From: Arachnia propionica
GTDB taxonomy: Bacteria > Actinomycetota > Actinomycetes > Propionibacteriales > Propionibacteriaceae
Assembly: GCF_037055325.1 (NCBI RefSeq)
Contig: NZ_CP146373.1
Location: forward strand, 1,736,001 to 1,800,000
Length of the DNA: 64,000 nt
Direction: 5' to 3'
Shown here: positions 44,565-61,574 of the stretch, one piece after another
How the letters are laid out: the number at the start of each line of letters is the position of its first letter
Numbering within the stretch: the stretch's first letter is position 1
Notes under the pieces: model-generated
Told to the model about the DNA's origin: nothing
What the model saw: only the letters and a program-made list of their open reading frames with translations
Database searches by the model: none
Made by a program: the position numbers and the translations under genes

Positions 44565-44679
44565 TCGCTGAGCCCGGTTCACCGGCCCCTGCCCCAGAGA
44601 CCCACGTGGTCGCAGACAGGCTCCACGTCTCACCGGCCCCACCATTCTGTTGTCAGGGCAGCGCCGGGGGGAGCCAAGG

Positions 44680-46554
44680 ATGTCGAAACGGTCCACGCGA
44701 TCATTCGACCCCGGCACGTCGGTGTGGTGGTTGCTCTTGCCGCTCGTCGGGGCCATCGTGGGCGCCGCAATCCCCCTCCTTAGCCCCCTCGGCGGGGTGT
44801 GGAATGTGCTCGGTCCACTTCTGGGAGCCTTTGTGGGCGTTGTCGCGGATTTCACGCCGCAGGTTAGGGACTGGATCTCGACACGGGCGCGCAACAAATG
44901 GATCGCCGAGGTGTCTGGTGATTCCGGCCCGATCGGCAAGGCACATCTGGATTCGCTGCGCATTCACAGGTCTGACAGGGAGGTCGATGACTACGTCCGC
45001 CGCGATGTGCACGACAAGCTTCACGATTTTCTGAAAGACCGCGCCCCCGTCCTGGTGGAGGGCCCGTCGATGGCTGGCAAGACCCGCCTCGTGGTCCAGG
45101 TGCTCCGCGAGGAATGGCCCGACGCCCGTGTCCTGTTTCCCAAGAGCGAAGACGACGTGGAGAAGCTGCTGAAAAATTGGCGAAGGCCCATTCGCGGCGC
45201 CATCATTTTCCTCGACGAACTGGAACGCTTCCTGGGCAAAGAGGAGTTCACGCTCGGGGTCCTGAACACGTGGATCGATGATTCCTGCACCGTGGTGGCC
45301 ACCACGACCCGCATGAACTACACCAGATGGCGTGCAGAGCTGGACAGCAAGTTCCCCGGCTGGGAGATCGTCAACAGATTCCACCCGCTTCCCCTCGAAG
45401 CCAAGCTGTCCGACGATGAACTGATTGCGGTGGGGAGCACGAGCTACGCCGGGGATCTGGCATCCATTGAGCAGCTCGGGCTCGGTCGCGTGCTCGGCAG
45501 GGCCGAGGACATACGCCGACGGTTCACGTCGGCACTCGACAGCCACCAGGGCCGGGCCGGCCTGGTGAAGGCCGCGGTGGACTGGAGCCGTGTCGGCCTG
45601 GGGTCCGCGAGCAAAGAGGCCCTCCTCACGCTGGCGAAAACCTACGACGACGATCTCTGGGAGGATCCCGACTGGGAGACAGAATGGTCCTGGGTGATCG
45701 GCAAAACCACCGATGCGCCACTCGTGCTGCGCACCGGAAAGGACGCCTGGGAAGCCCTGGACCTCATAGTGGAGGAGGCGGACTGGCCCCTAACCGAGAC
45801 CACGCTGACGACCATGGCCACCTGCCCACACACAGCACGCCAAGCCGTGACGCTGGTTTTTGAAATGCACTCCAGAAACCTGCTGACAGGGGATACGGTG
45901 ACGGAGAACCTCGTGCAAGAAGCAGCAGACCTGGTACAAGAAATCTCTTCCGCAAATCCCTCCGACGCCAATCTTCTCGGCATCTACGCGTCCTTCCTCA
46001 GCGCCATTCACCAGAAATATGACCGCGCCGAGGAAATCTACGAGCAAGCCATCAAAGCCGACCCCAACAACGTCAATATCCTAGGCATCTACGCCATCTT
46101 CCTCACCACCACTCGCCAGAAATATGACCGCGCCGAAGAAATCTACGAACAAGCCATCAAAGCCGACCCCAACAATGCCATTATCCTCCGGAATTATTCT
46201 CAGTTTCTGTTCTTAACGGGCCGGGATGAGAAAGGGATGGAGTTTGCCGAGCGCACGCCGAGACTTGCCAGGCAGGGTCAGGAAGCGCTGTGTGCGGAGT
46301 GTCACTTCTATTTGTTCATGCACTCCCCGCGGCACCGAATCACGTCGGGGAGGGCACTCAAGGCCCTGCTGGCCGATGGGGTCACAACCGGCGACTGGTC
46401 GTTTGAGGGAAACCTGGAACGCCTCAGACAGGAGGAAGACCCCCGGTATGAGCTCGCCCGGGCGGTCGCCGAGGCGCTGCGAACCGGCGATACGAGCGCG
46501 CTGAATGACTTCGAGGAATGGCGCGACCTCGATCTTCCGGACCGGGAGGAATAG
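44680..46554 (+). CDS. Membrane-anchored STAND-like ATPase with TPR repeats, 624 aa
   Basis: ATG 44680 after GGGGGAGCC. Two N-terminal hydrophobic segments (15-55: VWWLLLPLVGAIVGAAIPLL; GPLLGAFVGVVADF) precede a P-loop ATPase: Walker A LVEGPSMAGKT (about 128), Walker B AIIFLDELE (about 182), sensor-like VVATTTRMNYTRW. Helical region 290-420, then two TPRs of 35 residues containing the identical YDRAEEIYEQAIKADPNN. A C-terminal helical domain follows. STAND ATPases are often signalling or defence switches. No effector domain recognised, so the role is open. Confidence 0.75.
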   Translation: MSKRSTRSFDPGTSVWWLLLPLVGAIVGAAIPLLSPLGGVWNVLGPLLGAFVGVVADFTPQVRDWISTRARNKWIAEVSGDSGPIGKAHLDSLRIHRSDREVDDYVRRDVHDKLHDFLKDRAPVLVEGPSMAGKTRLVVQVLREEWPDARVLFPKSEDDVEKLLKNWRRPIRGAIIFLDELERFLGKEEFTLGVLNTWIDDSCTVVATTTRMNYTRWRAELDSKFPGWEIVNRFHPLPLEAKLSDDELIAVGSTSYAGDLASIEQLGLGRVLGRAEDIRRRFTSALDSHQGRAGLVKAAVDWSRVGLGSASKEALLTLAKTYDDDLWEDPDWETEWSWVIGKTTDAPLVLRTGKDAWEALDLIVEEADWPLTETTLTTMATCPHTARQAVTLVFEMHSRNLLTGDTVTENLVQEAADLVQEISSANPSDANLLGIYASFLSAIHQKYDRAEEIYEQAIKADPNNVNILGIYAIFLTTTRQKYDRAEEIYEQAIKADPNNAIILRNYSQFLFLTGRDEKGMEFAERTPRLARQGQEALCAECHFYLFMHSPRHRITSGRALKALLADGVTTGDWSFEGNLERLRQEEDPRYELARAVAEALRTGDTSALNDFEEWRDLDLPDREE

Positions 46555-46596
46555 CTCGGGCGGTTTCGGCACGGGCTTTCACCCAGGGGATCACGC

Positions 46597-46613
46597 CCGG
46601 CTCAACCGGCTTC
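46597..46613. repeat. Intergenic repeat motif CCGGCTCAACCGG (three sites)
   Basis: CCGGCTCAACCGGCTTC here, TCGGCTCAACCGGCTTC at 57938 and CCGGCTCAACCGGATTC at 60217, all between genes. Partly palindromic, like small REP elements. Confidence 0.5.
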
Positions 46614-46636
46614 ATGCGGGCAGCCCGGAATGCCGG

Positions 46637-48016
46637 TCAGGTGGCGAGGATCCATGCCGCGGTGGCCCAGGCCTCGGTTTCCAGCGACCGCTCCGCCTCT
46701 GCTGGGGGCGGTTCCTCCCAGCCGGGCGGGGGTTCGGGTTCCCGGGGCCGGGGCGGCGGGGATGCGATGCGGATGGTTCCCTGCGCGGCGACCAGGTACT
46801 GGTATCCGGCCGGGGAGATCCAGTGGAAGATGCCCGGTTCGGGTTGGGTCAGGTGCCAGCCGCCGTGGGTTTTCACCCGGTGCGTGAATCTCGACAACGG
46901 CCCGAGGTTTCCCCACCTGGTCTGGCCCGGACCGCCGTCGTCGGCGTAGGGGATGGTGTGGTCCAGGTCGCAGCTCCGTGACGGCGTCGCCCCGTAGGGG
47001 AACACGTCGTGCGGCATGAGGGTTTCGACCGCCGTGCGCAGCGACACAGAAGGATGGTGTGGGGTCTCGGGGCTGATGGCCCAGGGATCCACGACGGGCC
47101 GGACCGTCACCCGCGAACCGGCCAGGAACTCGGGGATCCGAGCGGTCAGGAGAGCACCCCAGCGCTCCACCACGGCGGCACCCGATGCGACAGGACTCGA
47201 ACCTGCGATCCCACCGGCCCCATCCGTCGGCTCCACGAGCCCGAGGGCGGGGTCGGTGGCGTTCACGTGCACCACCACGGTGGCCGCGGGCAGCGCGTCC
47301 TGACCGCTCACCCGCCGGGCCAGAACACCGACCGCGGCGGCGCGCCGCTGCCTCATGTCGCCCTCCTCGGCGGGCAAGGTCCGGGCGACGGCGGTGAGGG
47401 CGTGATCGAACGCGACGCCGTCGGCGGCGTCCACGATGCCCCAGATCGTGCAGTGCCCGTCGGTGATCCCGGAGACCTCCACGTCCCGGCGGTGGCGTTC
47501 CGCCTCGGCCCGCTCCGCGGCGACCGCGGGATCGGCCTCCACGATCCACCGATCAATGTGCTTGAGGATCCGCTGCCACGACCAGACCTTCATCGCCCAG
47601 GCGAGCTGCCGATCCAGCCACTCCACCGCCTTCACGCCCAGCACGGCGGCCCGGTTGGTGACGTCAACCACCTGCCACCACCGCAGCTCCCCGCCCAGGA
47701 AGGCCTCCCACAGCCGCGGGAACCTGAAGCGCACATCCAGCACGTCGGCGATCCTCTGCAGCGCCGAACCGGTGGAGATCCCGAGGATCCCGGCAATCTC
47801 GGCGGCGAGGAACTCCCCCACCCCGGGGGTGCCCGCGTGACCGGGAAAGATCACGCGCTCCATCCCCTCGAACACCGCTTCCTGATCAACCTCGTAGAGT
47901 TCGGCGGCCTTCGCCACGGCCACCACCGCGGCGACCTCGGCGGCCCGGGCATGGCGATTCGCCTCATCAAGCGCGGCAAAAGCCTCTGTCACACACCCGG
48001 GAACCATCTCGAACAT
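46637..48016 (-). CDS. DUF222 / HNH endonuclease-like protein (13E12 type), 459 aa
   Basis: ATG 48016 chosen (MFEMVPGCVTEAF). A DUF222 helical region (about 20-250) is followed by an HNH motif: CDLDHTIPYADDGG, GNLGPLSRFTHRVKTHGGW. Such proteins are abundant, often multicopy, in actinobacteria; their biological role is unclear. Convergent with the STAND gene. Confidence 0.88.
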   Translation of the reverse strand: MFEMVPGCVTEAFAALDEANRHARAAEVAAVVAVAKAAELYEVDQEAVFEGMERVIFPGHAGTPGVGEFLAAEIAGILGISTGSALQRIADVLDVRFRFPRLWEAFLGGELRWWQVVDVTNRAAVLGVKAVEWLDRQLAWAMKVWSWQRILKHIDRWIVEADPAVAAERAEAERHRRDVEVSGITDGHCTIWGIVDAADGVAFDHALTAVARTLPAEEGDMRQRRAAAVGVLARRVSGQDALPAATVVVHVNATDPALGLVEPTDGAGGIAGSSPVASGAAVVERWGALLTARIPEFLAGSRVTVRPVVDPWAISPETPHHPSVSLRTAVETLMPHDVFPYGATPSRSCDLDHTIPYADDGGPGQTRWGNLGPLSRFTHRVKTHGGWHLTQPEPGIFHWISPAGYQYLVAAQGTIRIASPPPRPREPEPPPGWEEPPPAEAERSLETEAWATAAWILAT

Positions 48017-48269
48017 ACATACGATTATACCCAACCTCGCTCCCACGCAGAAGCTATGTTCGATAACCGTTCGATAACTTCTTCGCAAGGCTGGGCTGCG
48101 GTCGCCGTGGTTTCGACACGACCCGCTCGATACGCCACCAGGCCTTGTTCACGGGCGGCGTGCCTGTCAGCAAAATCCCTGGTCAAGAAACACTTGAAGA
48201 TAGCTGTGAGTAAACCTGAACCATATTCCAGGTATCTCACTGCTGCCCACAAAACCATGTCAGTCCATT
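48017..48269. other. Intergenic stretch with a degraded MITE (48140-48218)
   Basis: AGGCCTTGTTCACGG, TCAGCAAAATCCCTGGTCA, CACTTGAAGATAGCTGTGAG and TAAACCT occur in the same order and spacing as in the MITEs at 50326 and 57608 (about 79 bp). A short repeat-like AACTTCTTCG...GGTTTCGACAC at 48075-48120 recurs at 57850-57920. Confidence 0.5.
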
Positions 48270-50237
48270 TTATTGTTGTTCGAGTGTGTTGGTGACCCAG
48301 TTGATCAGATGTTTCGTGTCCACGCGGGTGCCGGTGTTGTGGGTGCCGTTGGGGTCGTACCAGAGGGTGGTGTGTCCGCCGAGTGTTCGGGTGTGGAGTG
48401 TCCAGGTGAGTCCTTGGCGGGGGTTGACGCGGGTGTCTTTGGCGGAGATGGCTATCAGGGTTGGTGGTGGGGTGGTGGTGAGTTTGCGTAGGGGGGAGAG
48501 TTTCTCGAGGGTGTGTCGGTGGTGGGGGTTGTGTTGGGGGTCGCCCCATTCGTCGTGGTCGGCTTGTTCGGTGAGTGAGGGGTGGTGGAGGAGTGATTCG
48601 AGGGGGTCTATGTAGCCGTTGACGATCACGGCGGCGTCGATGTGTGTTGTGTGGTCGGCGAGGAGGGATGCGGTGAGGAATCCTCCGGCTGATGCGCCGA
48701 TGACGCATATTGTGGTGGCGGTTGCTGCTCCTCGTCCGGAGCGTAGCCATTGAATTGCTGTGACGGTGTCGGTGAGGGAGCGGTCGCGTCTGTCTTGGGA
48801 GCCGGCGTGGTGGCGTTGGGGGTCTCCTCCTCCTCGGACGTGGGGGGTTGCTACGGCGTAGCCGCGGTTTAGCCAGTGACCGAGTTCCGGGTCGGCGTCG
48901 AGGTCGATGTCGAGTCCGTAGGCTCCGTAGACCATGACGATGACTGGTCCGTGGAAGGTGGCCGAGTCTCCGTGCCATCGGATGTCGAGGTCGAACTGGT
49001 ATCCGTCGGGGGATGTGATGCGTTCTCGTGTGGCCTGGATGACTGGTCGGGGTTGCCGGTTCGTGGGGTTGAGTACTTGTCCGGTGCCGTCGAGGTACCA
49101 GGTGGTGGGGGGTGTTCCCACGATCATTTCGGCGATGACGAACCCGGTAGAGGTTGCGCCGGGGCTTGGGGTCAGCTGGAACATTCCTGGGGTAGTGAGC
49201 AGCCTGCGGGGCTCAGCGGTGGTTGCGGGTGTCAACGCTATCCACAGCAGGTCCTCGGTGTGACAGGTGCCCTGTGTCTGGCTGATACGCGCGAGTACGG
49301 CTTCATGGGCACCGATGAGGTGGTGGAGTTTTCCCTGCCCGGCCGCCACCCGCCACCGATTCTGTACCTGGCCGTCGCTGATGTGGCTGGCCTCGATACG
49401 CCACTGGTGAGCGTCATTGACCGCGTGGATGAGCACATACCCGTCCTCCAGGGGGGCGACATCGAACAGGTCGGGATCATGCACCGACTCTGGCATGGCA
49501 ATGGGCTGCAGCTGCGGGGCGGTGAGGTCGAAGATCTGCCAGATTCTGTTACTGCGAACACCGTGACCGACTTTGACGAAACGCCGCACGGAACACGCTT
49601 TGATGCTGACCCCACCGGCGGGTCCCTCGGCAAGTACCCGCGGAGGATCATCCAGACGGGTCGTGGTGACCGGTAGCAGGCGGGCCCTGGCCCTGCCCGG
49701 CTCGTTGGGATGCGGTTCCACGAACACCACAACCGGTTTGTCTGCCTGACACAGCGCCACGTCAGGGTACAGTCCCACCAGTACGAGTTCGGGTTCTGGA
49801 TCACCCCACCGGTGAACCGCCACCGCGTAGCGTTCCCGCTCAGGGTCGCCCAGAAGACGACACCACCACCCCAATTCCATCGACAGGTCACGCCTGCCCG
49901 TCACCCAGCCCGGCAGCTCCTCGATGTCGTTTTCCCCGGTAACCACAGGGGCACCAACCGGATGCTGCTCCACCGGATCCGAGATGAACTGCCCTACCAG
50001 GTCCCCACCATCCCCCGCGGCCAGACGTAACCAGCCCCCAGCCAACGGCACCACCTCACCACCAGCATCCCGCTGCTCACCCAAGTCGCGCCCACCCTCA
50101 CCGTTCTGGTTCTCGAGTGTGGTGATGTCTTGGCCGTGTTCTTCCAACAACTGCATGAGTGTGGCGTCATCAACCTCCATCCACTGACTCCACGAAGAGG
50201 AAGAACCACCCACAACCCGGCCTACAGGAATATCCAT
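48270..50237 (-). CDS. lanP: S9-family oligopeptidase of the lanthipeptide cluster (candidate leader protease), 655 aa
   Basis: ATG 50237 follows GAGAGGGAAG. A beta-propeller-like N-terminal region (about 20-400) is followed by an alpha/beta-hydrolase domain. Catalytic residues: Ser in IGASAGGFL, Asp in SAKDTRVNP, His in PNGTHNTG. The GASAGG nucleophile elbow is closer to oligopeptidase B (basic-residue specific) than to prolyl oligopeptidase (GGSNGG). S9 proteases remove leaders in some class III lanthipeptide pathways (FlaP). The precursors have a KRR before the core and no Pro, consistent with basic-residue cleavage. No signal peptide. Confidence 0.8.
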   Translation of the reverse strand: MDIPVGRVVGGSSSSWSQWMEVDDATLMQLLEEHGQDITTLENQNGEGGRDLGEQRDAGGEVVPLAGGWLRLAAGDGGDLVGQFISDPVEQHPVGAPVVTGENDIEELPGWVTGRRDLSMELGWWCRLLGDPERERYAVAVHRWGDPEPELVLVGLYPDVALCQADKPVVVFVEPHPNEPGRARARLLPVTTTRLDDPPRVLAEGPAGGVSIKACSVRRFVKVGHGVRSNRIWQIFDLTAPQLQPIAMPESVHDPDLFDVAPLEDGYVLIHAVNDAHQWRIEASHISDGQVQNRWRVAAGQGKLHHLIGAHEAVLARISQTQGTCHTEDLLWIALTPATTAEPRRLLTTPGMFQLTPSPGATSTGFVIAEMIVGTPPTTWYLDGTGQVLNPTNRQPRPVIQATRERITSPDGYQFDLDIRWHGDSATFHGPVIVMVYGAYGLDIDLDADPELGHWLNRGYAVATPHVRGGGDPQRHHAGSQDRRDRSLTDTVTAIQWLRSGRGAATATTICVIGASAGGFLTASLLADHTTHIDAAVIVNGYIDPLESLLHHPSLTEQADHDEWGDPQHNPHHRHTLEKLSPLRKLTTTPPPTLIAISAKDTRVNPRQGLTWTLHTRTLGGHTTLWYDPNGTHNTGTRVDTKHLINWVTNTLEQQ

Positions 50238-50325
50238 CACTTCCCTCTCATACGTCACAACTCATCAACACATTCACCAGCAAACCCCATCGACCAGAAC
50301 ACATTCAAGAATACCCATGAACAAA

Positions 50326-50405
50326 GAAGCTTATTCACAGGCAACACCTCGACCAGCGAAACCACTAGTCAGACAACACTTGAGGACGGCTATGAATTAA
50401 GCCTC
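50326..50405. repeat. MITE, 80 bp, inside the lanthipeptide operon
   Basis: Ends GAAGCTTATTCACAG and TATGAATTAAGCCTC, flanked by AAA on both sides. Interior CGACCAGCGAAACCACTAGT. It separates the exporter gene from the protease gene. Confidence 0.75.
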
Positions 50406-50434
50406 AAAACCCCTTCTGCCTGTTTGATGTTTCA

Positions 50435-52426
50435 TCAGGCTGCGACGAGAGACCGGAACAGTGCGGAGCGTCGGTGTACCTCGGCGGGCGGCCCGAACTC
50501 AACCAACCGCCCCTTATCCAACACCAACACCAGGTCGGCGATGTTCATGCCGAAATGGCCGTGTCCGGCAGCGAAAGTGGTGATCCCACCCATCGTGGTT
50601 CGAATGAGGTTCATAATCTGTTCCCGGTTCACAACATCAAGACCCGAGGTAATCTCATCCAACAACAACATCCGAGGCTGACCAACAAGGGTCCTAGCTA
50701 TCGCCAACCGCTGCCGCTCACCACCAGAAAACGCATACGCTGACTCCCCCACCGGGGTGTCCAACCCGCCCTCACGAGCACTGATCGTCTCACCCAAACC
50801 AACCTGATGAATGATCTCCCAACACCGATCATCATCAATATCACGCCCCAACAACAAATTGTCACGCACCGTCCCACTAAACAACGGACACGCCTGCTCG
50901 ATGTAACCGACCTGACGCCGGTACTCATCATCATCATGCTCACCAAGCGGCACCCGATCCACCATGATCGCCCCCTCGGTGGGAACAATGAACTTCTCCA
51001 ACAACGACAACACCGTCGACTTACCCGAACCCGACGAACCAGTCATCGCCACCCACGAACCAGCCGGAACACTGAACGTCACCCCCGCCAACGCATACTC
51101 ACGATTCCCACCACCCGCCTGCGGGTACCGCACCGACACATCACGGAAACCAACCTCACCCACCAAACCAGCCCTCACAGGCACACCACCAACCTCGGCA
51201 ACAACTGGCTGCTTAACCTGGACCCGAGAGGCAGGCTGATCCGTCACCGCACGCAAATCAATAATCCGCTGCAAAGCCCCCAAACACTCCGCCATGTCCA
51301 TCACAGTTCCCGCGCTCCCAGTGATCGGAGTGATGATCAACATCATATACATGAAAAACGACACCAACTGCTCAACAGACAAAACCCCCGCCTGCACCCG
51401 CACCACCGCAATACACACAACCACCAACAACGTCGCCTGCACACAAATCGTGACCACCGGAGTCATGAAAGCATGCGCCCGATCCCCCCGATTCGACGCC
51501 TCGAGAAGCTCACCACTCGACTTATCCAAACGCCGCACAGCAAACCTATCAGCCACGAAAGCCCTCAACGTCAACACCGAATCCAACGCCCTGGTCACCT
51601 CCGCAACATACGCCCCCTGAGCCTCCTGACGATGAAACGAAAACGATGTCAACCTATTCGAAATGACAATAATGAAAACCAAACACACCACCGTCAACCC
51701 AACCGCAGAAATGGTGAGCACCGGATCCAACACAGCCATCTGGAACAACGCCCCCACCACCATCACAACCCCACCCAAAGCCTGCACAGGCCCCTGACTG
51801 AAAACCTTACTCAAATGCTCCGAATCAATACTGCACCGAGCAACCAAATCAGCCGTAGGATGCTGCACAAGCTTATCCGCAGGAACCCGCAAAGCAATCG
51901 CAGCAGACTCATCCCGGAAAGCACGCACCGTACGATTACCAGCCTTCGCACCCACAACATTCACAACAGCCGTAATCCCGGAAGCAAAAACAGCCAACCC
52001 AGCCAAAAACACCCCATACGGAAGCGCAGCCAAAAAACCCCCACTCTGCAACACCCCCACAATCGACCCCGCCAACAAAGGCTGCGCCAACGACACAAGA
52101 GACGACAAAACCGTACCAACAAAAATCAGAACCAACGCCCGCGGCTCCAACCGCAAAACCCTCACCAAACGACGAAGACCACCCCTCGGCGGATCAGCAA
52201 GAAAATTGGCGACCGGCTCACCGCCCCGAGAGCGACCGCGCGGCTCTCTGTCGGGAGCTGGATCCCAAGATTCTTCGGTCAATGGCATCCGAGACTCTGG
52301 CAGAGTCCGAGGAATTTCAGGCATAGCGCGTCGGGGAACCATGCCACGGCCGAACGAGTCTGCACGTAACGAGTCCAGCCGTTTCGCCAAGCCCGAAGCC
52401 ACAGCAACTCCCCTGTCTCTACCCAT
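50435..52426 (-). CDS. lanT: ABC exporter (membrane domain plus ATPase) of the lanthipeptide cluster, 663 aa
   Basis: ATG 52426 after GGTGGAG. Residues 1-85 are a charged Pro/Arg-rich extension. Six membrane helices lie between about 95 and 375. The nucleotide-binding domain (about 430-660) has Walker A GSSGSGKST, signature FSGGERQR, Walker B MLLLDEITSGLD and an H-loop with AAGHGHFG. There is no N-terminal C39 peptidase, so leader removal must be separate. It lies between precursors and protease, so its likely cargo is the mature or near-mature peptide. Confidence 0.88.
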   Translation of the reverse strand: MGRDRGVAVASGLAKRLDSLRADSFGRGMVPRRAMPEIPRTLPESRMPLTEESWDPAPDREPRGRSRGGEPVANFLADPPRGGLRRLVRVLRLEPRALVLIFVGTVLSSLVSLAQPLLAGSIVGVLQSGGFLAALPYGVFLAGLAVFASGITAVVNVVGAKAGNRTVRAFRDESAAIALRVPADKLVQHPTADLVARCSIDSEHLSKVFSQGPVQALGGVVMVVGALFQMAVLDPVLTISAVGLTVVCLVFIIVISNRLTSFSFHRQEAQGAYVAEVTRALDSVLTLRAFVADRFAVRRLDKSSGELLEASNRGDRAHAFMTPVVTICVQATLLVVVCIAVVRVQAGVLSVEQLVSFFMYMMLIITPITGSAGTVMDMAECLGALQRIIDLRAVTDQPASRVQVKQPVVAEVGGVPVRAGLVGEVGFRDVSVRYPQAGGGNREYALAGVTFSVPAGSWVAMTGSSGSGKSTVLSLLEKFIVPTEGAIMVDRVPLGEHDDDEYRRQVGYIEQACPLFSGTVRDNLLLGRDIDDDRCWEIIHQVGLGETISAREGGLDTPVGESAYAFSGGERQRLAIARTLVGQPRMLLLDEITSGLDVVNREQIMNLIRTTMGGITTFAAGHGHFGMNIADLVLVLDKGRLVEFGPPAEVHRRSALFRSLVAA

Positions 52427-52583
52427 TACTCCACCCTCAAGCCGGTTGGAAAATATCTAAAATATTTTTCACAATAAATACAGATGGATAACGACACACA
52501 ACTCTCACCACAGCCCACCCATTCAACGGACATCTCCCTCAATTAATCAGCAAAGAAATAATTTTAAAAGCCGGGGAAACTCT
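52427..52583. other. AT-rich gap between exporter and last precursor copy
   Basis: No gene. Markedly AT-rich for this genome (AAATATTTTTCACAATAAAT near 52457). It may hold a promoter for the exporter gene. Confidence 0.3.
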
Positions 52584-52658
52584 TCAACTTTCACCAGATA
52601 GTCGTCTCCTTTGGACATCCTCGACGACATCGGTCTGAAGGTTCAAAACGTTGGCCAT
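52584..52658 (-). CDS. Degenerate fifth lanthipeptide precursor (leader only), 24 aa
   Basis: Same ribosome-binding site (GGAGGAGGTG) and leader MANVLNLQTDVVE as the intact copies, then diverges to DVQRRRLSGES and stops. It has no Cys, so no (labionin) ring can form. The divergence coincides with the end of the repeat array, so the core was probably lost at the array edge. It may be silent or a decoy. Confidence 0.6.
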   Translation of the reverse strand: MANVLNLQTDVVEDVQRRRLSGES

Positions 52659-52910
52659 GGTTTTCACCTCCTCCCACACATTGCACTGACCAGACAATTG
52701 GGATATGCTCTCCAGCGCCGCCTAGTTCAAGAACCGACTCGAGCGGCACTCATCGAACCAGAGACGGACGGTTGGCGAACGGCGACACCCATCGCCAACC
52801 ACCCGCCACATACGGGAAACCAGAGTCGAAACCCCGATCAAGGTCACCACTTCACCCATCCAGGCAAACCAGCTTCCTCGCTCCCCTGCTGCGTGGTACA
52901 TGCTGAACTA

Positions 52911-53009
52911 TCATCCCCAGCAAACCCACCGGCTGACCCAACTGGACCGCCTCTTGGTTTCCTGGGTCACCTCGACGACATCGGTCTGAAGATTCAAAAC
53001 GTTAGCCAT
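52911..53009 (-). CDS. lanA: Class III lanthipeptide precursor, copy 4, 32 aa
   Basis: Identical peptide to copies 1-3 (see 53970-54068). The ribosome-binding site GGAGGAGGTGACAAATC is unchanged. The spacer downstream of it is the slightly diverged one leading to the degenerate copy. Confidence 0.85.
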   Translation of the reverse strand: MANVLNLQTDVVEVTQETKRRSSWVSRWVCWG

Positions 53010-53263
53010 GATTTGTCACCTCCTCCCACACACTGCACTGACCAGACAATTGGGATATGCTCTCCAGCGCCGCCTAGTTCAAGAACCGACTCGAGCGGCA
53101 CTCAACGAACCAGAGGACAGGTGGTTGGCGAACGGCGACACCCATCGCCAACCACCCGCCACATACGGGAAACCAGAGTCGAAACCCCGATCAAGGTCAC
53201 CACTTCACCCATCCAGGCAAACCAGCTTCCTCGCTCCCCTGCTGCGTGGTACATGCTGAACTA

Positions 53264-53362
53264 TCATCCCCAGCAAACCCACCGGCTGACCCAACTGGAC
53301 CGCCTCTTGGTTTCCTGGGTCACCTCGACGACATCGGTCTGAAGATTCAAAACGTTAGCCAT
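53264..53362 (-). CDS. lanA: Class III lanthipeptide precursor, copy 3, 32 aa
   Basis: Identical in DNA and protein to copies 1 and 2, including ribosome-binding site and spacer. Confidence 0.85.
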   Translation of the reverse strand: MANVLNLQTDVVEVTQETKRRSSWVSRWVCWG

Positions 53363-53616
53363 GATTTGTCACCTCCTCCCACACACTGCACTGACCAGAC
53401 AATTGGGATATGCTCTCCAGCGCCGCCTAGTTCAAGAACCGACTCGAGCGGCACTCAACGAACCAGAGGACAGGTGGTTGGCGAACGGCGACACCCATCG
53501 CCAACCACCCGCCACATACGGGAAACCAGAGTCGAAACCCCGATCAAGGTCACCACTTCACCCATCCAGGCAAACCAGCTTCCTCGCTCCCCTGCTGCGT
53601 GGTACATGCTGAACTA

Positions 53617-53715
53617 TCATCCCCAGCAAACCCACCGGCTGACCCAACTGGACCGCCTCTTGGTTTCCTGGGTCACCTCGACGACATCGGTCTGAAGATT
53701 CAAAACGTTAGCCAT
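53617..53715 (-). CDS. lanA: Class III lanthipeptide precursor, copy 2, 32 aa
   Basis: Identical in DNA and protein to copies 1 and 3, including ribosome-binding site and spacer. Confidence 0.85.
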   Translation of the reverse strand: MANVLNLQTDVVEVTQETKRRSSWVSRWVCWG

Positions 53716-53969
53716 GATTTGTCACCTCCTCCCACACACTGCACTGACCAGACAATTGGGATATGCTCTCCAGCGCCGCCTAGTTCAAGAACCGACTCGA
53801 GCGGCACTCAACGAACCAGAGGACAGGTGGTTGGCGAACGGCGACACCCATCGCCAACCACCCGCCACATACGGGAAACCAGAGTCGAAACCCCGATCAA
53901 GGTCACCACTTCACCCATCCAGGCAAACCAGCTTCCTCGCTCCCCTGCTGCGTGGTACATGCTGAACTA

Positions 53970-54068
53970 TCATCCCCAGCAAACCCACCGGCTGACCCAA
54001 CTGGACCGCCTCTTGGTTTCCTGGGTCACCTCGACGACATCGGTCTGAAGATTCAAAACGTTAGCCAT
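53970..54068 (-). CDS. lanA: Class III lanthipeptide precursor, copy 1, 32 aa
   Basis: ATG 54068 has a near-ideal ribosome-binding site (GGAGGTGACAAATC). The N-terminus MANVLNLQTDVVE fits the class III leader motif (hydrophobic-x-x-Leu-Gln) and the known labyrinthopeptin A2 leader start MASILELQ. The C-terminus KRRSSWVSRWVCWG contains Ser23-x2-Ser26-x3-Cys30, the labionin pattern. Labyrinthopeptin A2 has the comparable SDWSLWEC. LanKC should phosphorylate and eliminate both Ser, then cyclise them with the single Cys. Cleavage after the Arg pair would give a Trp-rich 11-residue product. It is the first of four identical copies and lies 86 bp after lanKC. Confidence 0.88.
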   Translation of the reverse strand: MANVLNLQTDVVEVTQETKRRSSWVSRWVCWG

Positions 54069-54099
54069 GATTTGTCACCTCCTCTCACTGGTTTTCAGT

Positions 54100-54150
54100 A
54101 TTGGATTTGGGTAGCTCACCCACCGTCCCTCGTTGTTGAGGGGGGTTGGG
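54100..54150 (-). terminator. Possible attenuator hairpin between lanKC and the first precursor
   Basis: On the minus strand CCCAACCCCCCTC pairs imperfectly with GAGGGACGGTGGG around AACAAC. It could partly separate lanKC transcription from the precursors. Only weak T content follows. Confidence 0.35.
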
Positions 54151-54153
54151 GAG

Positions 54154-56790
54154 CTAGTGACTCGGTACGACCCCGATGAGGTCGCGTGTTTCCGAGCCAA
54201 GCTGTGAAATCGCCGGCTGCTGTAACAGCCCGGCCGTGCGGGCACTGATCGGCAAACCCACATAGGGTTGCCGGGATTGGTAGGCGTGCAGCGCCAGCGC
54301 GACCCCAGCAGCACCGGTACCCAGATCAGAACTGAGACGAATCAACCCCTCACCGACCACCAAGGCATGCTCGTCGTGGGTCAGGAGACTGTCGAGCAAC
54401 AAACCCGCCTGCCGATCAGCCTCTACCCGGCATTGTTCTCCGGCGGCTGTCAGCGTGACCAGGATGCCAGCGCGACCGTGATCCAAACCCGGATAGATGT
54501 AAAACTCCGAGGAGCAGGCTTTGATGATCCCGTCACGTTCCTGCGATGTCAGTACCGGTTCACCCGTGACGCGTTCAAGCGCTGAAGCGATCAGCAACAC
54601 ACCAGCAGACCCCCACTCGGTGTAGGGAAGCACCCGATTCTTGGATGGGTCATCGATCATCACCTCACCAGTAGCCATGGTCACACACGCATCCAGATCC
54701 GCACGCAACCGAACCCTCGCCCTGACAAGAGGCTCCTCAGCGCCGGTGACGGCATGGGCAACCAGGTCCGTCAACGCAACCCCAGTCAATCCCCAGAACA
54801 AACCCCGACGACGACACAACACAGCCCACGCTGATCCATCCGGAGTGAGGCAGGCATCCAACCTGCGATACGCCGCAACCGCACGATCCATCAACCCCGA
54901 ATCCCCGCTGGTTTTCGCCACCTCCAAAGCAGCCAAGATCACTCCCGCCTGACCCGCAGCCAGATCCAACCTACGACGCCCCAAAGCCGACTCAAGCGCC
55001 TTCCCGGCAGCAGCCACAGCATCCTGGTGGGCGTCCACCTCGCTGAGCGTCAACGCCACCCCGGCCACACCATTCAACAACCCCGGAGCCTCCCGCCCCG
55101 GCCACTCCCGAGCGGTCTTACGCAACGCCTCCACATCACCATCAGCAGGAACAACACCCACACGCTGCTGAGCCAGCACCACACCAGCACGCCCGGTCGT
55201 GATCACCTCATGAACACCCGCCGCCAGCTGGCTGATATCACCAGGAAACGCCCCATCCGGACCAAACTGCCGCGACCATTCAATCCCACTCAACAACCCA
55301 GCAATCCCAGAATCCACACTCAACCGCTGTGATGGCACACCCACAGTGACATCACTAGCCGTCACCGGACGAACACCAGCCGCATAGCGGCCCTCCACCA
55401 ACGCCAACTGCTCAGCCGCCCGTTCGCCATACACCTCGCGAACCCTGTGGCGACACCGCTCCCAAAACGCCGGCGACACCGCCTCAATCTCAAAATCAGG
55501 ACAATACAGCATCATGATGCAGCGAGCCACCGCAAACCAGTCAGCCTGCCTAGCATCCGCCGACTTGTCAGCACAATACTGAAACACCCTGACACCAGGC
55601 TCACGCGGCGAGTCCACCCTGCTGGCATCCTCCAAATCAAGCATCGTCACCGCCCCATCATCAGACACCAACACATTCCCAGGATGAAGATCACCAAACG
55701 CCCACCCACGCTGATGAATCCTTTCAACAACACCAATCAGCTGATCCACAATAGCCACCACCTGACGGGCATACTCCACCGGATCACTCTCCTGCAAACG
55801 GTCATTGTGTGACATCCACGACGTCAACGTCGCACCAGGGATGTAGTCCACCTCCAAATAGCGATGCTCCCACGCGGTGAACACCCCCCGAAGCTGCTGC
55901 ACACCCTTCACACCAACAAGATCCCGCAGCACCTCCTCCTCAACTAACTGACGCTGCAACGCACACCGATTCCTACCATCCAACCCGGCATGCGGCCTAG
56001 CCTCCCGAAGAATCCTGACCTCACCATCAGGCAACTCCGCACGATACACCCCACCCGCATTACTGAAACTCAACGGCTTGATACTCACAAAATCATCCAA
56101 CCGAGACTCACACGACTGCCGTGATGCCTCATACGCCGCCCGAAGAAACTCCGGAACCTCCACCCCATCAGGAATCACAACACGCGGATCACGATGATCC
56201 GGAATCAACCGCATATCACGAGGATCAACAATCGACTCAACCAGCTCATCATCCACATCAGGAGCCTGCATCCCCAGGAACGCCCCATACCGAACGAACA
56301 CAGGAGCATCCGGAACATACCGAAGATCAGACAGAATATAAGGCCCCTCCTGACCCCTCAACACACCAGCCAAAACACCCAGCAACTCACCCAACTGGCC
56401 ATCATCATCCGGATAAATCGTAATGAACTTACCCGCCGCACCACGAGCCTGATTCTTCGACGACGACTCCATCAACTCCGCCAACGTTGGCAAGAACTTA
56501 AACGAAACCCCAGCCTCCACACACACCCTCGTAGTCCGCGCCAACGTCTCCACAGCACACTCAGGAGTCGCCGACACATGAACCTTCCACCCCTGCAACC
56601 GAGGCTCCCAATCCCGAGGCGACCACCCCTCCCAACCGCCCCCACACTGCACCAACCACCCAGCCGGCAACTCCACCGACTGCAACCGCCGATCCAACGA
56701 ACCACCCTGCACCTCAGCAAACGGCCTCGGCCGACCATAAAAAGGCGAACCCTTCACCGCACCCTGAAAATACTCAACACGCACAGCCAT
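54154..56790 (-). CDS. lanKC: LanKC, class III lanthipeptide synthetase, 878 aa
   Basis: Trifunctional enzyme: N-terminal lyase-like region (1-220: MAVRVEYFQGAVKGSPFYGR; KFLPTLAELMESSSKNQARG, typical of class III/IV; GKFITIYPDDD), Ser/Thr kinase-like domain (225-500; catalytic loop WAFGDLHPGNVLV about 365, metal site MLDLEDAS), and C-terminal LanC-like cyclase (520-878: PGLLNGVAGVALTL, LDLAAGQAGVILA, LDHGRAGILVTLTA). The zinc-ligand Cys-His motifs of class II/IV cyclases are absent, indicating class III. It installs lanthionine or labionin via phosphorylated Ser/Thr. AAGGGGAAG precedes ATG 56790. No regulator is adjacent. Confidence 0.93.
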   Translation of the reverse strand: MAVRVEYFQGAVKGSPFYGRPRPFAEVQGGSLDRRLQSVELPAGWLVQCGGGWEGWSPRDWEPRLQGWKVHVSATPECAVETLARTTRVCVEAGVSFKFLPTLAELMESSSKNQARGAAGKFITIYPDDDGQLGELLGVLAGVLRGQEGPYILSDLRYVPDAPVFVRYGAFLGMQAPDVDDELVESIVDPRDMRLIPDHRDPRVVIPDGVEVPEFLRAAYEASRQSCESRLDDFVSIKPLSFSNAGGVYRAELPDGEVRILREARPHAGLDGRNRCALQRQLVEEEVLRDLVGVKGVQQLRGVFTAWEHRYLEVDYIPGATLTSWMSHNDRLQESDPVEYARQVVAIVDQLIGVVERIHQRGWAFGDLHPGNVLVSDDGAVTMLDLEDASRVDSPREPGVRVFQYCADKSADARQADWFAVARCIMMLYCPDFEIEAVSPAFWERCRHRVREVYGERAAEQLALVEGRYAAGVRPVTASDVTVGVPSQRLSVDSGIAGLLSGIEWSRQFGPDGAFPGDISQLAAGVHEVITTGRAGVVLAQQRVGVVPADGDVEALRKTAREWPGREAPGLLNGVAGVALTLSEVDAHQDAVAAAGKALESALGRRRLDLAAGQAGVILAALEVAKTSGDSGLMDRAVAAYRRLDACLTPDGSAWAVLCRRRGLFWGLTGVALTDLVAHAVTGAEEPLVRARVRLRADLDACVTMATGEVMIDDPSKNRVLPYTEWGSAGVLLIASALERVTGEPVLTSQERDGIIKACSSEFYIYPGLDHGRAGILVTLTAAGEQCRVEADRQAGLLLDSLLTHDEHALVVGEGLIRLSSDLGTGAAGVALALHAYQSRQPYVGLPISARTAGLLQQPAISQLGSETRDLIGVVPSH

Positions 56791-57607
56791 TTACTTCTTC
56801 CCCTTGTCTTCCAAACAGGTTTAATGATTTGCCGAGCATCGATCACTAATTTTCCTCGCATCCAAACGAAAAGAACGTTTGATCTTTCATACAACTAGCA
56901 TGGCATCATCCCCGTTTTCTGCCCCTCGAAGAAAACCACATGTCGTAAAATTATATGCCCCCTCTTGAGAGCACAAAGATCGCTCTCCTGAGCCATTCAG
57001 AAACCTCGCGAGAGATTTCTATTTTGCTACACCCCCATTTCTGATGATTGACATCTCACTTGACTCCAACCCTAGCATGGGTCGAAATCGTAGCAACAGC
57101 TCCTAAAGGACAGGATTGCTAGCCAAAAGTTACTCCATCGAGCAAACCTCACGGAGCACCAACCGCAACGCACCCGGACGCCTTTCTATTCAGTTTCACA
57201 TCTTCACATCAACACACTCTACAAGCCCATGTCAACCCCCACGAGGCCATCAAACCAAATTCACCCCGAGGTCACCCATGATTCACGGAAGATCCCCACC
57301 CAATTCACCCCATCCGCCGCACCTTATTCACGACCCTTAACAAACAATTGCCAACCCGAAGAATCTCCCCGACTAGGGGTTTCACTGACAACTAGACATC
57401 TTTTCGTTGAGGATTCATCAAATTGATTTGAGCAATCAATTTTTCAGTCAACTTGGCGATCGATTCTTCATCACACAGCGTGGGCATGATGCCGGAACAT
57501 CACCCTCTGTCCTCAAGGCGGCTGTTCAGTTGAGTACGAAACACACGCAAGCACCTTAACGCTCGTTAACTAACCAAGGGTATTGCAACGAAATGGCACC
57601 AGTCCTT
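56791..57607. promoter_or_regulatory. AT-rich region upstream of the lanthipeptide operon
   Basis: About 800 bp without a convincing gene on either strand and with lower GC than the flanks. It must hold the lanKC promoter. No regulator gene and no obvious operator recognised. Confidence 0.4.
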
Positions 57608-57686
57608 GAAGCTTATTCACGGACAACACCTCGGCCAGAGAAACCCCTAGTCAGACAATGTTTGAGGGCGGCTATGAATAAGCCTC
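57608..57686. repeat. MITE, 79 bp, flanked by CTT
   Basis: Ends GAAGCTTATTCACGG and CTATGAATAAGCCTC with CTT at 57605-57607 and 57687-57689. Interior CAACACCTCGGCCAGAGAAA and CTAGTCAGACAA match the 50326 copy. It marks the upstream border of the lanthipeptide region. The following 300 bp to the response regulator hold no gene, only short intergenic repeats. Confidence 0.8.
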
Positions 57687-57991
57687 CTTGGTCAAGGAAA
57701 CCAGTTGCTGGCGCGACGGATCTGGCACTGCATGTCCCAGCCACCTCGACAGCGCGGCACACCAAAGGCCCTATCCGCACACCCGGAAACTATATCGAAC
57801 TTACATACGTTTCTAATTGGTCTCGCTCATACATAGAGGCCGGCTCGGTAACTTCTTCGTGGGGTCGGAGGACTTGTGGTCAGGTCCCCAGACACGGTCA
57901 CCATGGTTTTCGACACACCCAGCTCCTTCGTCGCCGGTCGGCTCAACCGGCTTCGAGACACGACATCCAGTCGACTTGGGGGACGACCCCC

Positions 57992-58657
57992 TCACACCAG
58001 GCGGTAGCCCATCCCCCGGACTGTTTCGAAGCGTTGCTTGCCCAGTTTGTTGCGCAGGTAGGAGACGTAGACGTCGACGACGTTCGAGCCGGGATCGAAA
58101 TCGAAGCCCCACACGTTGCTGAGGAGCTGCTCACGGCTGAGCACCTGGCCCGGGTTGCGCAGGAACACCTCCGCCAGGGTGAACTCGCGGGCCGATAAAT
58201 CCACCCACTGGCCGTCGACCTGGGCGCGACGGGTGCGGTAGTCCAGCACCAGGCCGCGATGCTCCAGGTGATTCGCGGATGTCCTGGCGGGTTCGGGTTC
58301 GGCCCTGAGCCGCAACCGGATCCGGGCCAGCAGCTCCTCAAAGGAGAAGGGTTTCGGCATGTAGTCGTCGGCGCCACCCTCTAGTCCCGCCACCCGGTCG
58401 GCCACCGACGAGCGGGCCGTGAGCATGATCACCGGTGTCGCCACGCCCTGCCCGCGGATGCGTTCCAGCACCTCGAACCCGTCGATGTCCGGCAGTCCGA
58501 CGTCCAGAATGATCAACGCGAAGTCGCCGTGCACCGCCAGCGTGGCCCCCGTCTCACCGGAGGGTGTGGTCTCGGATGTGAATCCCGCCGACTTCAACCC
58601 CTTGGCTATGAATCCTGCGATCCTGGGTTCGTCCTCGATGATCAATATACTGCTCAC
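57992..58657 (-). CDS. OmpR-family response regulator, 221 aa
   Basis: GTG 58657 overlaps the kinase stop (GTGA) and has GAGGGAA upstream. Receiver domain 1-115 with the acidic pair IIEDEP, phospho-acceptor Asp in LIILDVGLPDIDGFE and Lys in YMPKPFSFEELL. A winged-helix DNA-binding domain (125-221) carries SAREFTLAEVFLRNPG and the terminal VDVYVSYLRNKLG...VRGMGYRLV. Partner of the kinase at 58654. The target genes are unknown; its nearness to the lanthipeptide operon is suggestive only. Confidence 0.93.
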   Translation of the reverse strand: MSSILIIEDEPRIAGFIAKGLKSAGFTSETTPSGETGATLAVHGDFALIILDVGLPDIDGFEVLERIRGQGVATPVIMLTARSSVADRVAGLEGGADDYMPKPFSFEELLARIRLRLRAEPEPARTSANHLEHRGLVLDYRTRRAQVDGQWVDLSAREFTLAEVFLRNPGQVLSREQLLSNVWGFDFDPGSNVVDVYVSYLRNKLGKQRFETVRGMGYRLV

Positions 58658-60156
58658 TGCTGTGGTTCCCTCGATTCGGATGCGCCCTCCGGGAGTGGCC
58701 CGATGGGCGAGGCGTGGGGACTCGCGGGGTTCATCGGAACCCGCAGCGTGAACACCGATCCGCTCTTCGGTACGGATTCGATGTCCAGGTGCCCACCATG
58801 GGCCTCCACGATACTGTCGACGATGTTGAGCCCCAATCCTGACCCCGATGCCCGCTGCGCCGCAGCCGCCGTCCGGGCAAACCGTTGCCGCACCGTGGCA
58901 GTTTCCTCCGGTGTCATGCCGATGCCCTGGTCGCGCACCCACAGCAGCACCGACGTGTCTTCGACCCGGGACCCGATGCCGATCCGGGTTCCCTCGTCGG
59001 AGTATTTGACGGCGTTGGCGGCGAGTTGGAGCCACGCCTGGGTGATTCGCATCGGGTCCAGCACCGCCTGCACCATCGCGACGTGTTCCAGCTGCCAGTC
59101 GCGGTTCCCCAGCGCCTTCGACTTCTCCAACACCTGATCGGTCAGCTCGGCGACATCGCAGGTGACGGGGGTCACGAAATCACTCTGGGAGGCCTTCGCG
59201 AGCGTGAGGAGGTCATTGACGAGCACCCCCATGCGGTCGAGTTCATCGATGGCGAGTTCCCGGGTCTGGATGACGTCGGTGGGATCGTGCTGGTCGATCA
59301 ACTCGAGGTGTCCGCGCACCACCGTGATGGGGGTGCGCAGTTCGTGCCCGACGTCGTCGAGGAGCCGACGCTGCCCCTCGACCGCGCCCTGCACCCGGTC
59401 CAGCATCCGGTTGACGGCCTTCGCCAGGGCGGTCAGGTCGTCGTGGCCGCGCACAGGAACGCGGGTGGTCAGGTCGTGTTCGTCAATCTGGTCGGTAGTC
59501 AGCCGGAGCTCCCCGATCGGTCGCAGGAGCCTGCCGACGACCAACCACGTGGGGGCGATGAGCAACGCCACCGTCAGCGCCGCCGCCCCCGCGTAGAACG
59601 CCATGGACTGCTGCAGCTGAGCCCTCGCCTGATCCATGTCAATGACGCGCAGCAGGGTGGCACGCTGGTTGCCGATGATCACGCTCGCCACGAGCACCCG
59701 GTAGCTCGTCCTGGACGTCCGGACGAATTTGATGACGTTGTCGCCCCCCGCCAGGTTGTCCTGGACGGCTGCCAGGAGCTCGGGGTCATCCTCGGGTTTG
59801 ATCACATCCAGGGGGGTGATGAACTGGTGCACACCGTCGATGAACCCTGCCTCCCCGGAGTCGTGGCTGATGACGCTGCGGCTCATGAAGGTTTTCAGCA
59901 CGTTGGGGGCGGAGGTAAACGGTTTCCCGGTTTCAGGATCCACCCCTTTCGTGGCCAGCGCCCTCAATTCACCCTGCACCCGCTCCAGCTGCTCCTTGGT
60001 GGTGTCCCAGAGGTGCCGGTTCTGAAGGATCCCGACGATCGTCCCGGAGATGGTCAGCGCAATCCCGGCCACCAGCACGAGGGCGACCATGAACCTAGTG
60101 CGAATGGTCGGTCCGCCGCGACGCAGAAACCTCCTCATCCCCTCATTCTTGCCCAT
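58654..60156 (-). CDS. Sensor histidine kinase, 500 aa
   Basis: Two membrane helices (about 23-45, FMVALVLVAGIALTISGTIV, and about 188-210) enclose an extracytoplasmic sensor region. HAMP follows (RLLRPIGELRLTTDQIDEHD), then HisKA with the phospho-acceptor His in DDVGHELRTPITVVRGHLEL and an HATPase domain (QLAANAVKYS, WVRDQGIGM, GSGLGLNIVDSIVEAHGG). ATG 60156 has AGGGGA upstream; an alternative ATG is at 60138. Coupled to the response regulator. The signal is unknown. Confidence 0.93.
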   Translation of the reverse strand: MGKNEGMRRFLRRGGPTIRTRFMVALVLVAGIALTISGTIVGILQNRHLWDTTKEQLERVQGELRALATKGVDPETGKPFTSAPNVLKTFMSRSVISHDSGEAGFIDGVHQFITPLDVIKPEDDPELLAAVQDNLAGGDNVIKFVRTSRTSYRVLVASVIIGNQRATLLRVIDMDQARAQLQQSMAFYAGAAALTVALLIAPTWLVVGRLLRPIGELRLTTDQIDEHDLTTRVPVRGHDDLTALAKAVNRMLDRVQGAVEGQRRLLDDVGHELRTPITVVRGHLELIDQHDPTDVIQTRELAIDELDRMGVLVNDLLTLAKASQSDFVTPVTCDVAELTDQVLEKSKALGNRDWQLEHVAMVQAVLDPMRITQAWLQLAANAVKYSDEGTRIGIGSRVEDTSVLLWVRDQGIGMTPEETATVRQRFARTAAAAQRASGSGLGLNIVDSIVEAHGGHLDIESVPKSGSVFTLRVPMNPASPHASPIGPLPEGASESREPQQ

Positions 60157-60243
60157 TCACCATCCCCTGGAAGCCGGTCAAGCCGGGTCGCGGCGAACTT
60201 TTCCCCACCGGTCGGGCCGGCTCAACCGGATTCCAGGGCTGGT

Positions 60244-61551: not shown

Positions 61552-61574
61552 GTGTTTCTCCTCATTTCACGGGT

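What the first reader, a model, noticed from the sequence alone, without database searches (positions are those of the whole stretch)
48270..56790. Apparently complete class III lanthipeptide cluster with unannotatable 32-aa precursors
Seen: LanKC without zinc ligands, exporter, S9 peptidase, and small genes with strong ribosome-binding sites encoding a MANVLNLQ leader and the SxxSxxxC core SWVSRWVC. Known: labyrinthopeptin A2 has leader MASILELQ and core motif SDWSLWEC, giving labionin. Inferred: the product is a minimal, single-labionin, three-Trp peptide of about 11 residues, shorter than the two-ring labyrinthopeptins. I do not know of a described compound with this core.
Basis: partly seen in the sequence, partly recalled or inferred. 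Interest (0 to 1): 0.9.

Follow-up and report, generated by a model that had tools for sequence, protein, structure and literature searches.

The report
One-ring class III lanthipeptide gene cluster
A bacterium related to the mouth-dwelling Arachnia carries a complete-looking gene cluster for a very small, tryptophan-rich, single-ring peptide of a known antibiotic-like family; the ring count and the peptide-trimming enzyme are the unusual parts.

Summary
Confirmed and extended. Window 48270-56790 (minus strand) encodes a class III lanthipeptide cluster: LanKC (NF038151, 638.7 bits, cut-off 575), four identical 32-aa precursors in a 353-bp tandem repeat, a fifth copy whose core is lost, an ABC exporter and an S9 peptidase. 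The same genome holds a second cluster of the same layout with two-Cys cores. Of 70 distinct precursor-like ORFs in 34 loci only the window's and one doubtful ORF have a single Cys. The window LanKC sits inside a clade of two-Cys relatives, so the single ring looks secondarily derived. Single-motif class III peptides are known or predicted elsewhere (PMC8960859, PMC11251773; also 3 of 48 ORFs), so the kind is not new. Less expected is the peptidase: its P1 column reads Asp in 13 of 13 relatives, acidic as in oligopeptidase B, but Trp in 22 of 22 FlaP-type enzymes, and leaders differ with it: Lys/Arg next to the core against Pro. I infer cleavage after Lys/Arg. Ring chemistry, cut site, production and bioactivity are untested.

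The parts
54154..56790 (-). LanKC, class III lanthionine synthetase (lyase, kinase, cyclase), 878 aa
   Evidence: NF038151 638.7 bits over cut-off 575; RamC_N 190.6 bits; PDB 8sap ThurKC E 3.7e-78 with lyase residues conserved; dN/dS 0.15-0.22 against L053, L052 and L022
53970..54068 (-). precursor copy 1, 32 aa, leader MANVLNLQ..., core motif SWVSRWVC
   Evidence: RBS GAGGAGGTGA
53617..53715 (-). precursor copy 2, identical
53264..53362 (-). precursor copy 3, identical
52911..53009 (-). precursor copy 4, identical protein
52584..52658 (-). fifth copy: RBS and leader kept, core replaced by unrelated codons, no Cys (24 aa); degenerate
52619..54088 (.). 353-bp tandem array that carries the precursors, 4.2 copies, 99% matches
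50435..52426 (-). ABC exporter, 663 aa, no C39 peptidase domain among its Pfam matches
   Evidence: Pfam PF00664 + PF00005
48270..50258 (-). S9 peptidase, catalytic S523/D608/H640, D567 in the P1-determining column; likely true start ATG at 50237
   Evidence: Pfam PF00326; alignments; start region; predicted fold matches oligopeptidase B, PREPL and POP structures

Best explanation
The operon makes a minimal class III lanthipeptide. LanKC binds the LNLQ-type leader, phosphorylates and eliminates the core serines (SSWVSRWVCWG) and adds the single Cys to give one S-x2-S-x3-C ring system (labionin, or a plain lanthionine). The ABC exporter moves the peptide out, and the clustered S9 peptidase removes the leader by cutting after the Lys-Arg-Arg stretch next to the core, not after proline. 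The single ring arose from a two-ring ancestor by loss of the first ring, and the shortened gene was amplified to four identical copies. Shown by sequence: genes, motifs, conserved residues, co-occurrence, tree position, synteny with L053. Inferred: ring type, cut site, order of steps, export, production.
For: Class III family membership. Leader LxLQ and RBS in four copies. Window LanKC pairs with L053 (88/92) and lies in a group of four with L052 and L022 (100/99); L053 is at the same chromosomal site (two-component genes 87-88% and DUF222 gene 96% identical on either side) and shares the C-terminal WVCWG. S9 in the window's family: all 9 genomes with LanKC at E<=1e-100 also have the S9 at E<=1e-50, against 1 of the other 138. 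D567 in 13 of 13, and Lys/Arg within 6 residues of the core in 45 of 48 distinct precursors; Trp in 22 of 22 FlaP-type S9s, with leader Pro in 13 of 13 (order set) and 9 of 9 (class set) and no leader Lys/Arg in 13 of 13 and 7 of 9. The aligned residue Glu576 sets P1 basic specificity in oligopeptidase B (PMC3778648, passage read). The window precursor has no proline at all.
Against: No product has been seen. Human PREPL also has acidic residues at both positions (E-L-E-E-W-G) and, as I recall, is not a typical basic-specific peptidase, so the column alone does not prove specificity. D and Trp types are few lineages, so their match with leader type may be one or two evolutionary events, and the D type was seen only in the window's family. 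38 of 48 D-type leaders also contain Pro, and 3 of 48 lack Lys/Arg near the core. In P. massiliense one cluster's S9 is frameshifted and the other is a remnant, so another protease can suffice or those clusters are dying. In G052 the S9 lies about 66 kb from LanKC. The S9 scores only 48.8 bits on the oligopeptidase B model, cut-off 1313, and FlaP-type enzymes hit that model too. The predicted fold does not separate oligopeptidase B, PREPL and POP. S9 dN/dS (0.28-0.34) is higher than that of LanKC and exporter.
Confidence: 0.7

Rival explanations
1. Same cluster, but the S9 peptidase is not the main leader protease: an AplP-like M1 or other host protease trims the leader, and the Lys/Arg near the core only helps LanKC or solubility.
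For: AplP-like genes lie outside the clusters in known class III producers and AplP cuts leaders of several (PMC10885120, passages read); S9 broken in both P. massiliense clusters; S9 unlinked in G052. I did not look for AplP-like genes here.
Against: S9 is in 9 of 9 genomes with this LanKC subfamily and in 1 of the other 138; catalytic triad and D567 invariant in 10 of 10; leader type tracks the S9 P1 column.
Confidence: 0.2
2. The four short precursors are decay products: ring one was lost by deletion, the cluster makes no functional peptide, and the repeat is incidental.
For: A fifth copy with a destroyed core lies in the same array; the precursor is 8 residues shorter than that of the syntenic L053.
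Against: Four copies keep leader, RBS and motif without a difference in the protein; dN/dS 0.15-0.22 for LanKC and 0.09-0.21 for the exporter against L053, L052 and L022 shows purifying selection, though over the whole lineage and not only since the shortening; single-motif cores work elsewhere (PMC8960859).
Confidence: 0.1
3. The product carries a simple lanthionine plus dehydroalanine rather than a labionin.
For: The Sx2Sx3C motif gives a lanthionine in some class III peptides and labionin in others (PMC7268733, passage read). The mass is the same for both, so sequence and intact mass cannot tell.
Against: Characterised one-motif peptides of Pre_24 bear a labionin ring (PMC8960859, passages read), and ThurKC makes labionin (PMC10604976, passages read).
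Confidence: 0.35

Closest known systems
Labyrinthopeptins (LabKC/LabA)
   Same: LanKC-type synthetase, LxLQ leader, S-x2-S-x3-C ring motif (labyrinthopeptin sequence recalled)
   Different: Labyrinthopeptins have two ring motifs; the window core has one. As I recall, no protease gene is in the lab cluster; here an S9 is present.
Flavipeptin (FlaKC/FlaA/FlaP, Kribbella flavida)
   Same: Class III cluster with an adjacent S9 peptidase
   Different: FlaP cuts after Pro(-12) (PMC10885120); the 15 FlaP-type S9s have ESNGG and Trp at the P1 column, and Pro leaders without Lys/Arg; window S9 has SAGG and Asp, and its precursor has no Pro.
Bacinapeptins / paenithopeptins (Pre_24, Firmicutes)
   Same: Only one S-x2-S-x2-5-C motif in the core (PMC8960859)
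   Different: Firmicutes; M16B proteases cutting at a QAAD-type site (PMC10885120, PMC8960859).
Lipolanthines (microvionin type)
   Same: Single-Cys labionin-derived core (PMC11251773)
   Different: Carry fatty-acid/PKS tailoring (recalled, and noted in a passage of PMC7268733); no such domain among the 7 flanking window ORFs scanned.
S. pneumoniae family III 3 with LanPB
   Same: Class III cluster with a prolyl oligopeptidase family protease (PMC7268733)
   Different: Its cut site is not given in the passages read; it also has a CAAX protease. Its S9 column was not examined here.

Membership tests
Class III lanthipeptide cluster (LanKC) | Synthetase passes the curated LanKC model | tested here: met
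   NF038151 638.7 bits, cut-off 575; class IV model 300 of 650
Class III lanthipeptide cluster (LanKC) | Lyase residues K65, H67, K94, K108, K117, D152, R163, R191 of ThurKC conserved | tested here: met
   read by eye from the alignment to 8sap, chain offset +3, against PMC10604976
Class III lanthipeptide cluster (LanKC) | Cyclase lacks the zinc ligand set Cys-Cys-His | tested here: met
   E725, D770, H771: both Cys gone, His kept; of 12 sequences with a cyclase (window included) 12 keep His and have E/D first, 10 have D second. Whether E-D-H binds a metal is open
Class III lanthipeptide cluster (LanKC) | Precursor with LxLQ leader and S-x2-S-x2-5-C core | tested here: met
Class III lanthipeptide cluster (LanKC) | Dehydrated, thioether-ringed product | not testable with these tools
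   needs expression and mass spectrometry
FlaP-type prolyl oligopeptidase | Trp at the P1 column, ESNGG nucleophile, Pro in the leader | tested here: not met
   Asp, SAGG, no Pro in the precursor
Oligopeptidase B | Passes the curated equivalog model | tested here: not met
   48.8 bits, cut-off 1313
Oligopeptidase B | Acidic residues at Glu576/Glu578 positions | tested here: met
   D567 and D569 align to E and D of OpB 7ne4 (the numbering to Glu576 is my count); D567 in 13 of 13. 'Works like OpB' is inferred; it is not filed as a member
Oligopeptidase B | Fold closer to OpB than to POP | tested here: inconclusive
   Model of mean pLDDT 71.7; Foldseek best hits OpB 7ne7 E 1.4e-27, PREPL 2.3e-27, POP 2bkl 1.6e-26
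Oligopeptidase B | Cleavage after Lys/Arg | not testable with these tools
   needs enzyme assay

The most novel reading that the evidence does not exclude
The cluster's S9 enzymes are a second, basic-residue-cutting type of clustered class III leader protease, distinct from FlaP, whose P1 pocket and the leader's junction residue changed together; it would free a single-ring, three-Trp peptide in one cut at Lys-Arg-Arg and could resolve the published puzzle of FlaP-like genes beside precursors without leader proline (Brevibacterium, PMC5719810).
Probability: 0.45. Interest if true: 0.6.

Novelty: new variant of a known kind. Interest (0 to 1): 0.45.

Why it matters
Leader removal is a poorly understood step for class III lanthipeptides and a common obstacle to making them in other hosts. 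A clustered protease that cuts after Lys/Arg right at the core would be a simple release tool, and the two enzyme types here give a one-residue test of what sets the cut site. The window peptide is also a small natural model for what one ring alone can do, with two-Cys sister precursors in the same genome as controls.

Tried and rejected
Considered and rejected: class IV or class II synthetase (models below cut-off); FlaP-type proline cleavage for this precursor (no Pro, Trp column absent); Rfam elements in 48000-58000 (0 matches at gathering score); promoter or terminator in the array (none of the 6 sites lies in it, and counts are near those of shuffles); a precursor beside the RamC_N-only locus L023 (none with an LxLQ leader in the list). 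The NCBIfam oligopeptidase B hit does not discriminate: FlaP-type S9s hit the same model, more strongly than the window's. The fold search does not discriminate either.

Results against the reading: single-Cys class III precursors are not unique to the window. In 40 loci from other orders 3 of 48 distinct precursor-like ORFs have one Cys (L126, L130, L155). The D-type S9 was found only in loci of the window's own family; 7 of those 40 loci have an S9 and all 7 are Trp-type. Two of 9 distinct Trp-type precursors from that set do carry Lys/Arg in the leader. In the order, no S9 was found in the 19 kb read of L098, L099 and L100. Rows dropped: I used 39 precursors out of the ORFs, leaving out alternative starts, an 82-aa ORF in L052 and a 34-aa single-Cys ORF in L060 (MADVLRLQ...); searches count that ORF. 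L100 gave no precursor-like ORF. The ORF filters need a leader pattern, an S/T motif and an RBS-like word, so odd precursors can be missed. The FlaP-type loci are 15 loci from 11 of the 37 f49 genomes matched; the class loci are 40 loci from 39 of the 56 other genomes matched.

The structure job finished late and was searched against the PDB only. One search contained an unrelated third row by mistake and was not used.

Full report
Observation. The finding is real. On the minus strand the order is lanKC (54154-56790), four identical precursor genes (starts 54068, 53715, 53362, 53009), a fifth copy with a destroyed core (52658-52584), an ABC exporter (50435-52426) and an S9 peptidase (48270-50258; the likely start is the ATG at 50237, behind GAGAGGGA). 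The precursor is MANVLNLQTDVVEVTQETKRRSSWVSRWVCWG. The copies lie in a 353-bp tandem repeat of 4.2 units; units 1 to 3, counted from the ATG, are identical in all 353 nt and unit 4 in its first 240. A motif of the form S/T-xx-S/T-x(2-5)-C turns up in many chance ORFs (46 of 575 small ORFs here; mean 36.65 in 20 simulated sequences), but leader and motif together occur 4 times here and 0 times in the simulations.

Enzymes. LanKC passes the NCBIfam class III model (638.7 bits, cut-off 575). Aligned to ThurKC (PDB 8sap, E 3.7e-78), it keeps all eight lyase residues named in PMC10604976 (passages read). At the three zinc-ligand positions of NisC, replaced in ThurKC by S726, F770 and D771, the window has E725, D770 and H771. 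So the two Cys ligands are gone but the His is kept; of 12 sequences with a cyclase domain, window included, 12 have E or D first and His third, and 10 have D second. Whether this set binds a metal is open. The mapping rests on a chain offset of 3 that I derived from the DFE motif. Against L053, L052 and L022, dN/dS is 0.15-0.22 for lanKC and 0.09-0.21 for the exporter; for the S9 it is 0.34 against L022 and 0.28 against L054.

The genome and its relatives. The window is 1736001-1800000 of a 3.31-Mb genome. A second cluster with the same gene order lies at 2.277-2.285 Mb: S9 76% and LanKC 84% identical, with four precursors (three distinct) whose cores carry two Cys. Exact matches to the precursor were found only in its own genome among 39 genomes of the genus.

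Ring count. I read precursor-like ORFs in 34 loci: 70 distinct peptides. Only the window's, and a doubtful 34-aa ORF in L060, have a single Cys. The LanKC tree of 11 rows puts the window with L053 (88/92) and inside a group of four with L052 and L022 (100/99); those three have cores with two or more Cys. L053 is at the same chromosomal site: the histidine kinase and response regulator on one side are 87-88% identical and the DUF222 gene on the other is 96% identical. Its core ends in the same WVCWG. The simplest reading is that ring one was lost and ring two kept, a difference of 8 residues; the DNA alignment of the cores is too poor to show the deletion itself. In 40 loci of other orders 3 of 48 distinct precursor-like ORFs also have one Cys, and the literature has such peptides: Pre_24 with bacinapeptins (PMC8960859, passages read) and 179 predicted single-Cys precursors plus lipolanthines (PMC11251773, passages read). 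So one ring is rare but not new. The latter paper holds that most single-Cys peptides are not degenerate versions of two-Cys ones; this case looks like an exception.

The peptidase. In the family sample of 147 genomes, LanKC at E<=1e-100 is in 9 and this S9 at E<=1e-50 in 10, with all 9 shared; the tenth (G138) is 72% complete. Three other family genomes carry more distant LanKC genes (G081, G061, G757): G081 has a divergent S9, while none was found in the 19 kb read in G061 and G757. Among the first 12 LanKC loci of the family the S9 is adjacent and intact in 9, broken in 2 (both in P. massiliense) and unlinked in 1, where it stands with an exporter and two more precursors about 66 kb away. 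The catalytic S523, D608 and H640 and the residue D567 are invariant in 10 of 10. D567 aligns with the first acidic residue of E-Y-D-E-W-G in oligopeptidase B; [quoted passage not shown] A predicted structure (mean pLDDT 71.7, pTM 0.63) finds oligopeptidase B first (7ne7, E 1.4e-27), then PREPL (2.3e-27), with prolyl endopeptidase 2bkl close behind (1.6e-26), so the fold confirms the S9 architecture but not the specificity.

A natural comparison. Their S9s have Trp at column 567 and ESNGG at the nucleophile in 15 of 15. In 40 further loci from other orders 7 have an S9, 7 of 7 with Trp, and all 9 distinct precursor-like ORFs there have leader Pro. By contrast column 567 is Asp in 13 of 13 loci of the window's type; 45 of their 48 distinct precursor-like ORFs (the doubtful L060 ORF included) have Lys or Arg within six residues of the core motif, 39 of them nowhere else in the leader, against 0 of 13 for the first Trp set. 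In the second Trp set 2 of 9 have leader Lys/Arg. Pro is also present in 38 of the 48, so Pro alone would not decide for those, but the window precursor has none. From this I infer a cut after Lys/Arg. It is an inference: the two types are few lineages, PREPL shows acidic residues at both positions too, and the enzyme does not pass the oligopeptidase B model.

Prior work. A 2017 study of Brevibacterium noted flaP-like genes in six of seven clusters while only one of six precursors had a leader Pro (PMC5719810, passage read). A basic-cutting S9 type could explain that; I did not examine those genes. Print searches, all in the one held library: Arachnia with lanthipeptide, 3 papers, 2 listed; passages of both read, neither describes a lanthipeptide cluster of Arachnia in what I saw. 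Pseudopropionibacterium with lanthipeptide, 0. Propionibacterium propionicum with lantipeptide, 1, passages read, no class III cluster described there. Class III lanthipeptide with oligopeptidase B, 0. The strings SWVSRWVC and MANVLNLQ had 0 occurrences in the 40 listed of 130 papers of a wider query; the other 90 were not shown. Supplementary tables of mining papers could not be read, so the precursor may be catalogued there. Identical precursor copies are known (13 in B. cereus) and so is a clustered prolyl oligopeptidase, LanPB (PMC7268733, passages read). Papers were read as passages found by term, except PMC8638593 (first of two parts of the text).

Verdict. An ordinary class III lanthipeptide cluster in kind, with two variations worth testing: a core reduced to one ring, in four identical copies, and an S9 leader peptidase whose conserved P1 residue and matching leader junction point to cutting after Lys/Arg.

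Noticed in passing
L023 (own genome 3176000-3195000), 6919-11573: A protein made of the RamC_N lyase domain alone (233 aa) is followed by an ABC ATPase and FtsX-type permease, a 186-aa orphan and an S9 C-terminal half; no LxLQ precursor was seen nearby. Remnant or a split system.
   Followed up: partly
L126 4109 (+), genome G333: A 28-aa single-Cys class III precursor (MYVLALQELDEEIVVDAPFSSISYFACH) with a Trp-type S9 and Pro two residues before the motif: an independent one-ring case.
   Followed up: partly
L096 5118 (+), genome G169: A class III precursor with a run of 18 serines before the Cys-containing end.
   Followed up: no
L052 and L053 (P. massiliense): The S9 gene is a 3' remnant in one cluster and frameshifted in the other, while lanKC and exporter stay open.
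   Followed up: partly
window 45965-46187: A 105-bp repeat inside a TPR protein gene (44650-46554), 2.1 copies.
   Followed up: no
window 46637-48088 (-): A DUF222 protein just downstream of the cluster, 96% identical at the same place in P. massiliense; the family is often linked to mobile repeats (recalled).
   Followed up: no
window 4551-5236 and 10016-10186: Short-period tandem repeats of 9-51 bp.
   Followed up: no
window 50001-58000: lanKC, array and exporter are lower in G+C (0.52-0.60 per kb) than the sequence at 44001-48000 and 58001-64000 (0.62-0.72), which may point to transfer.
   Followed up: no
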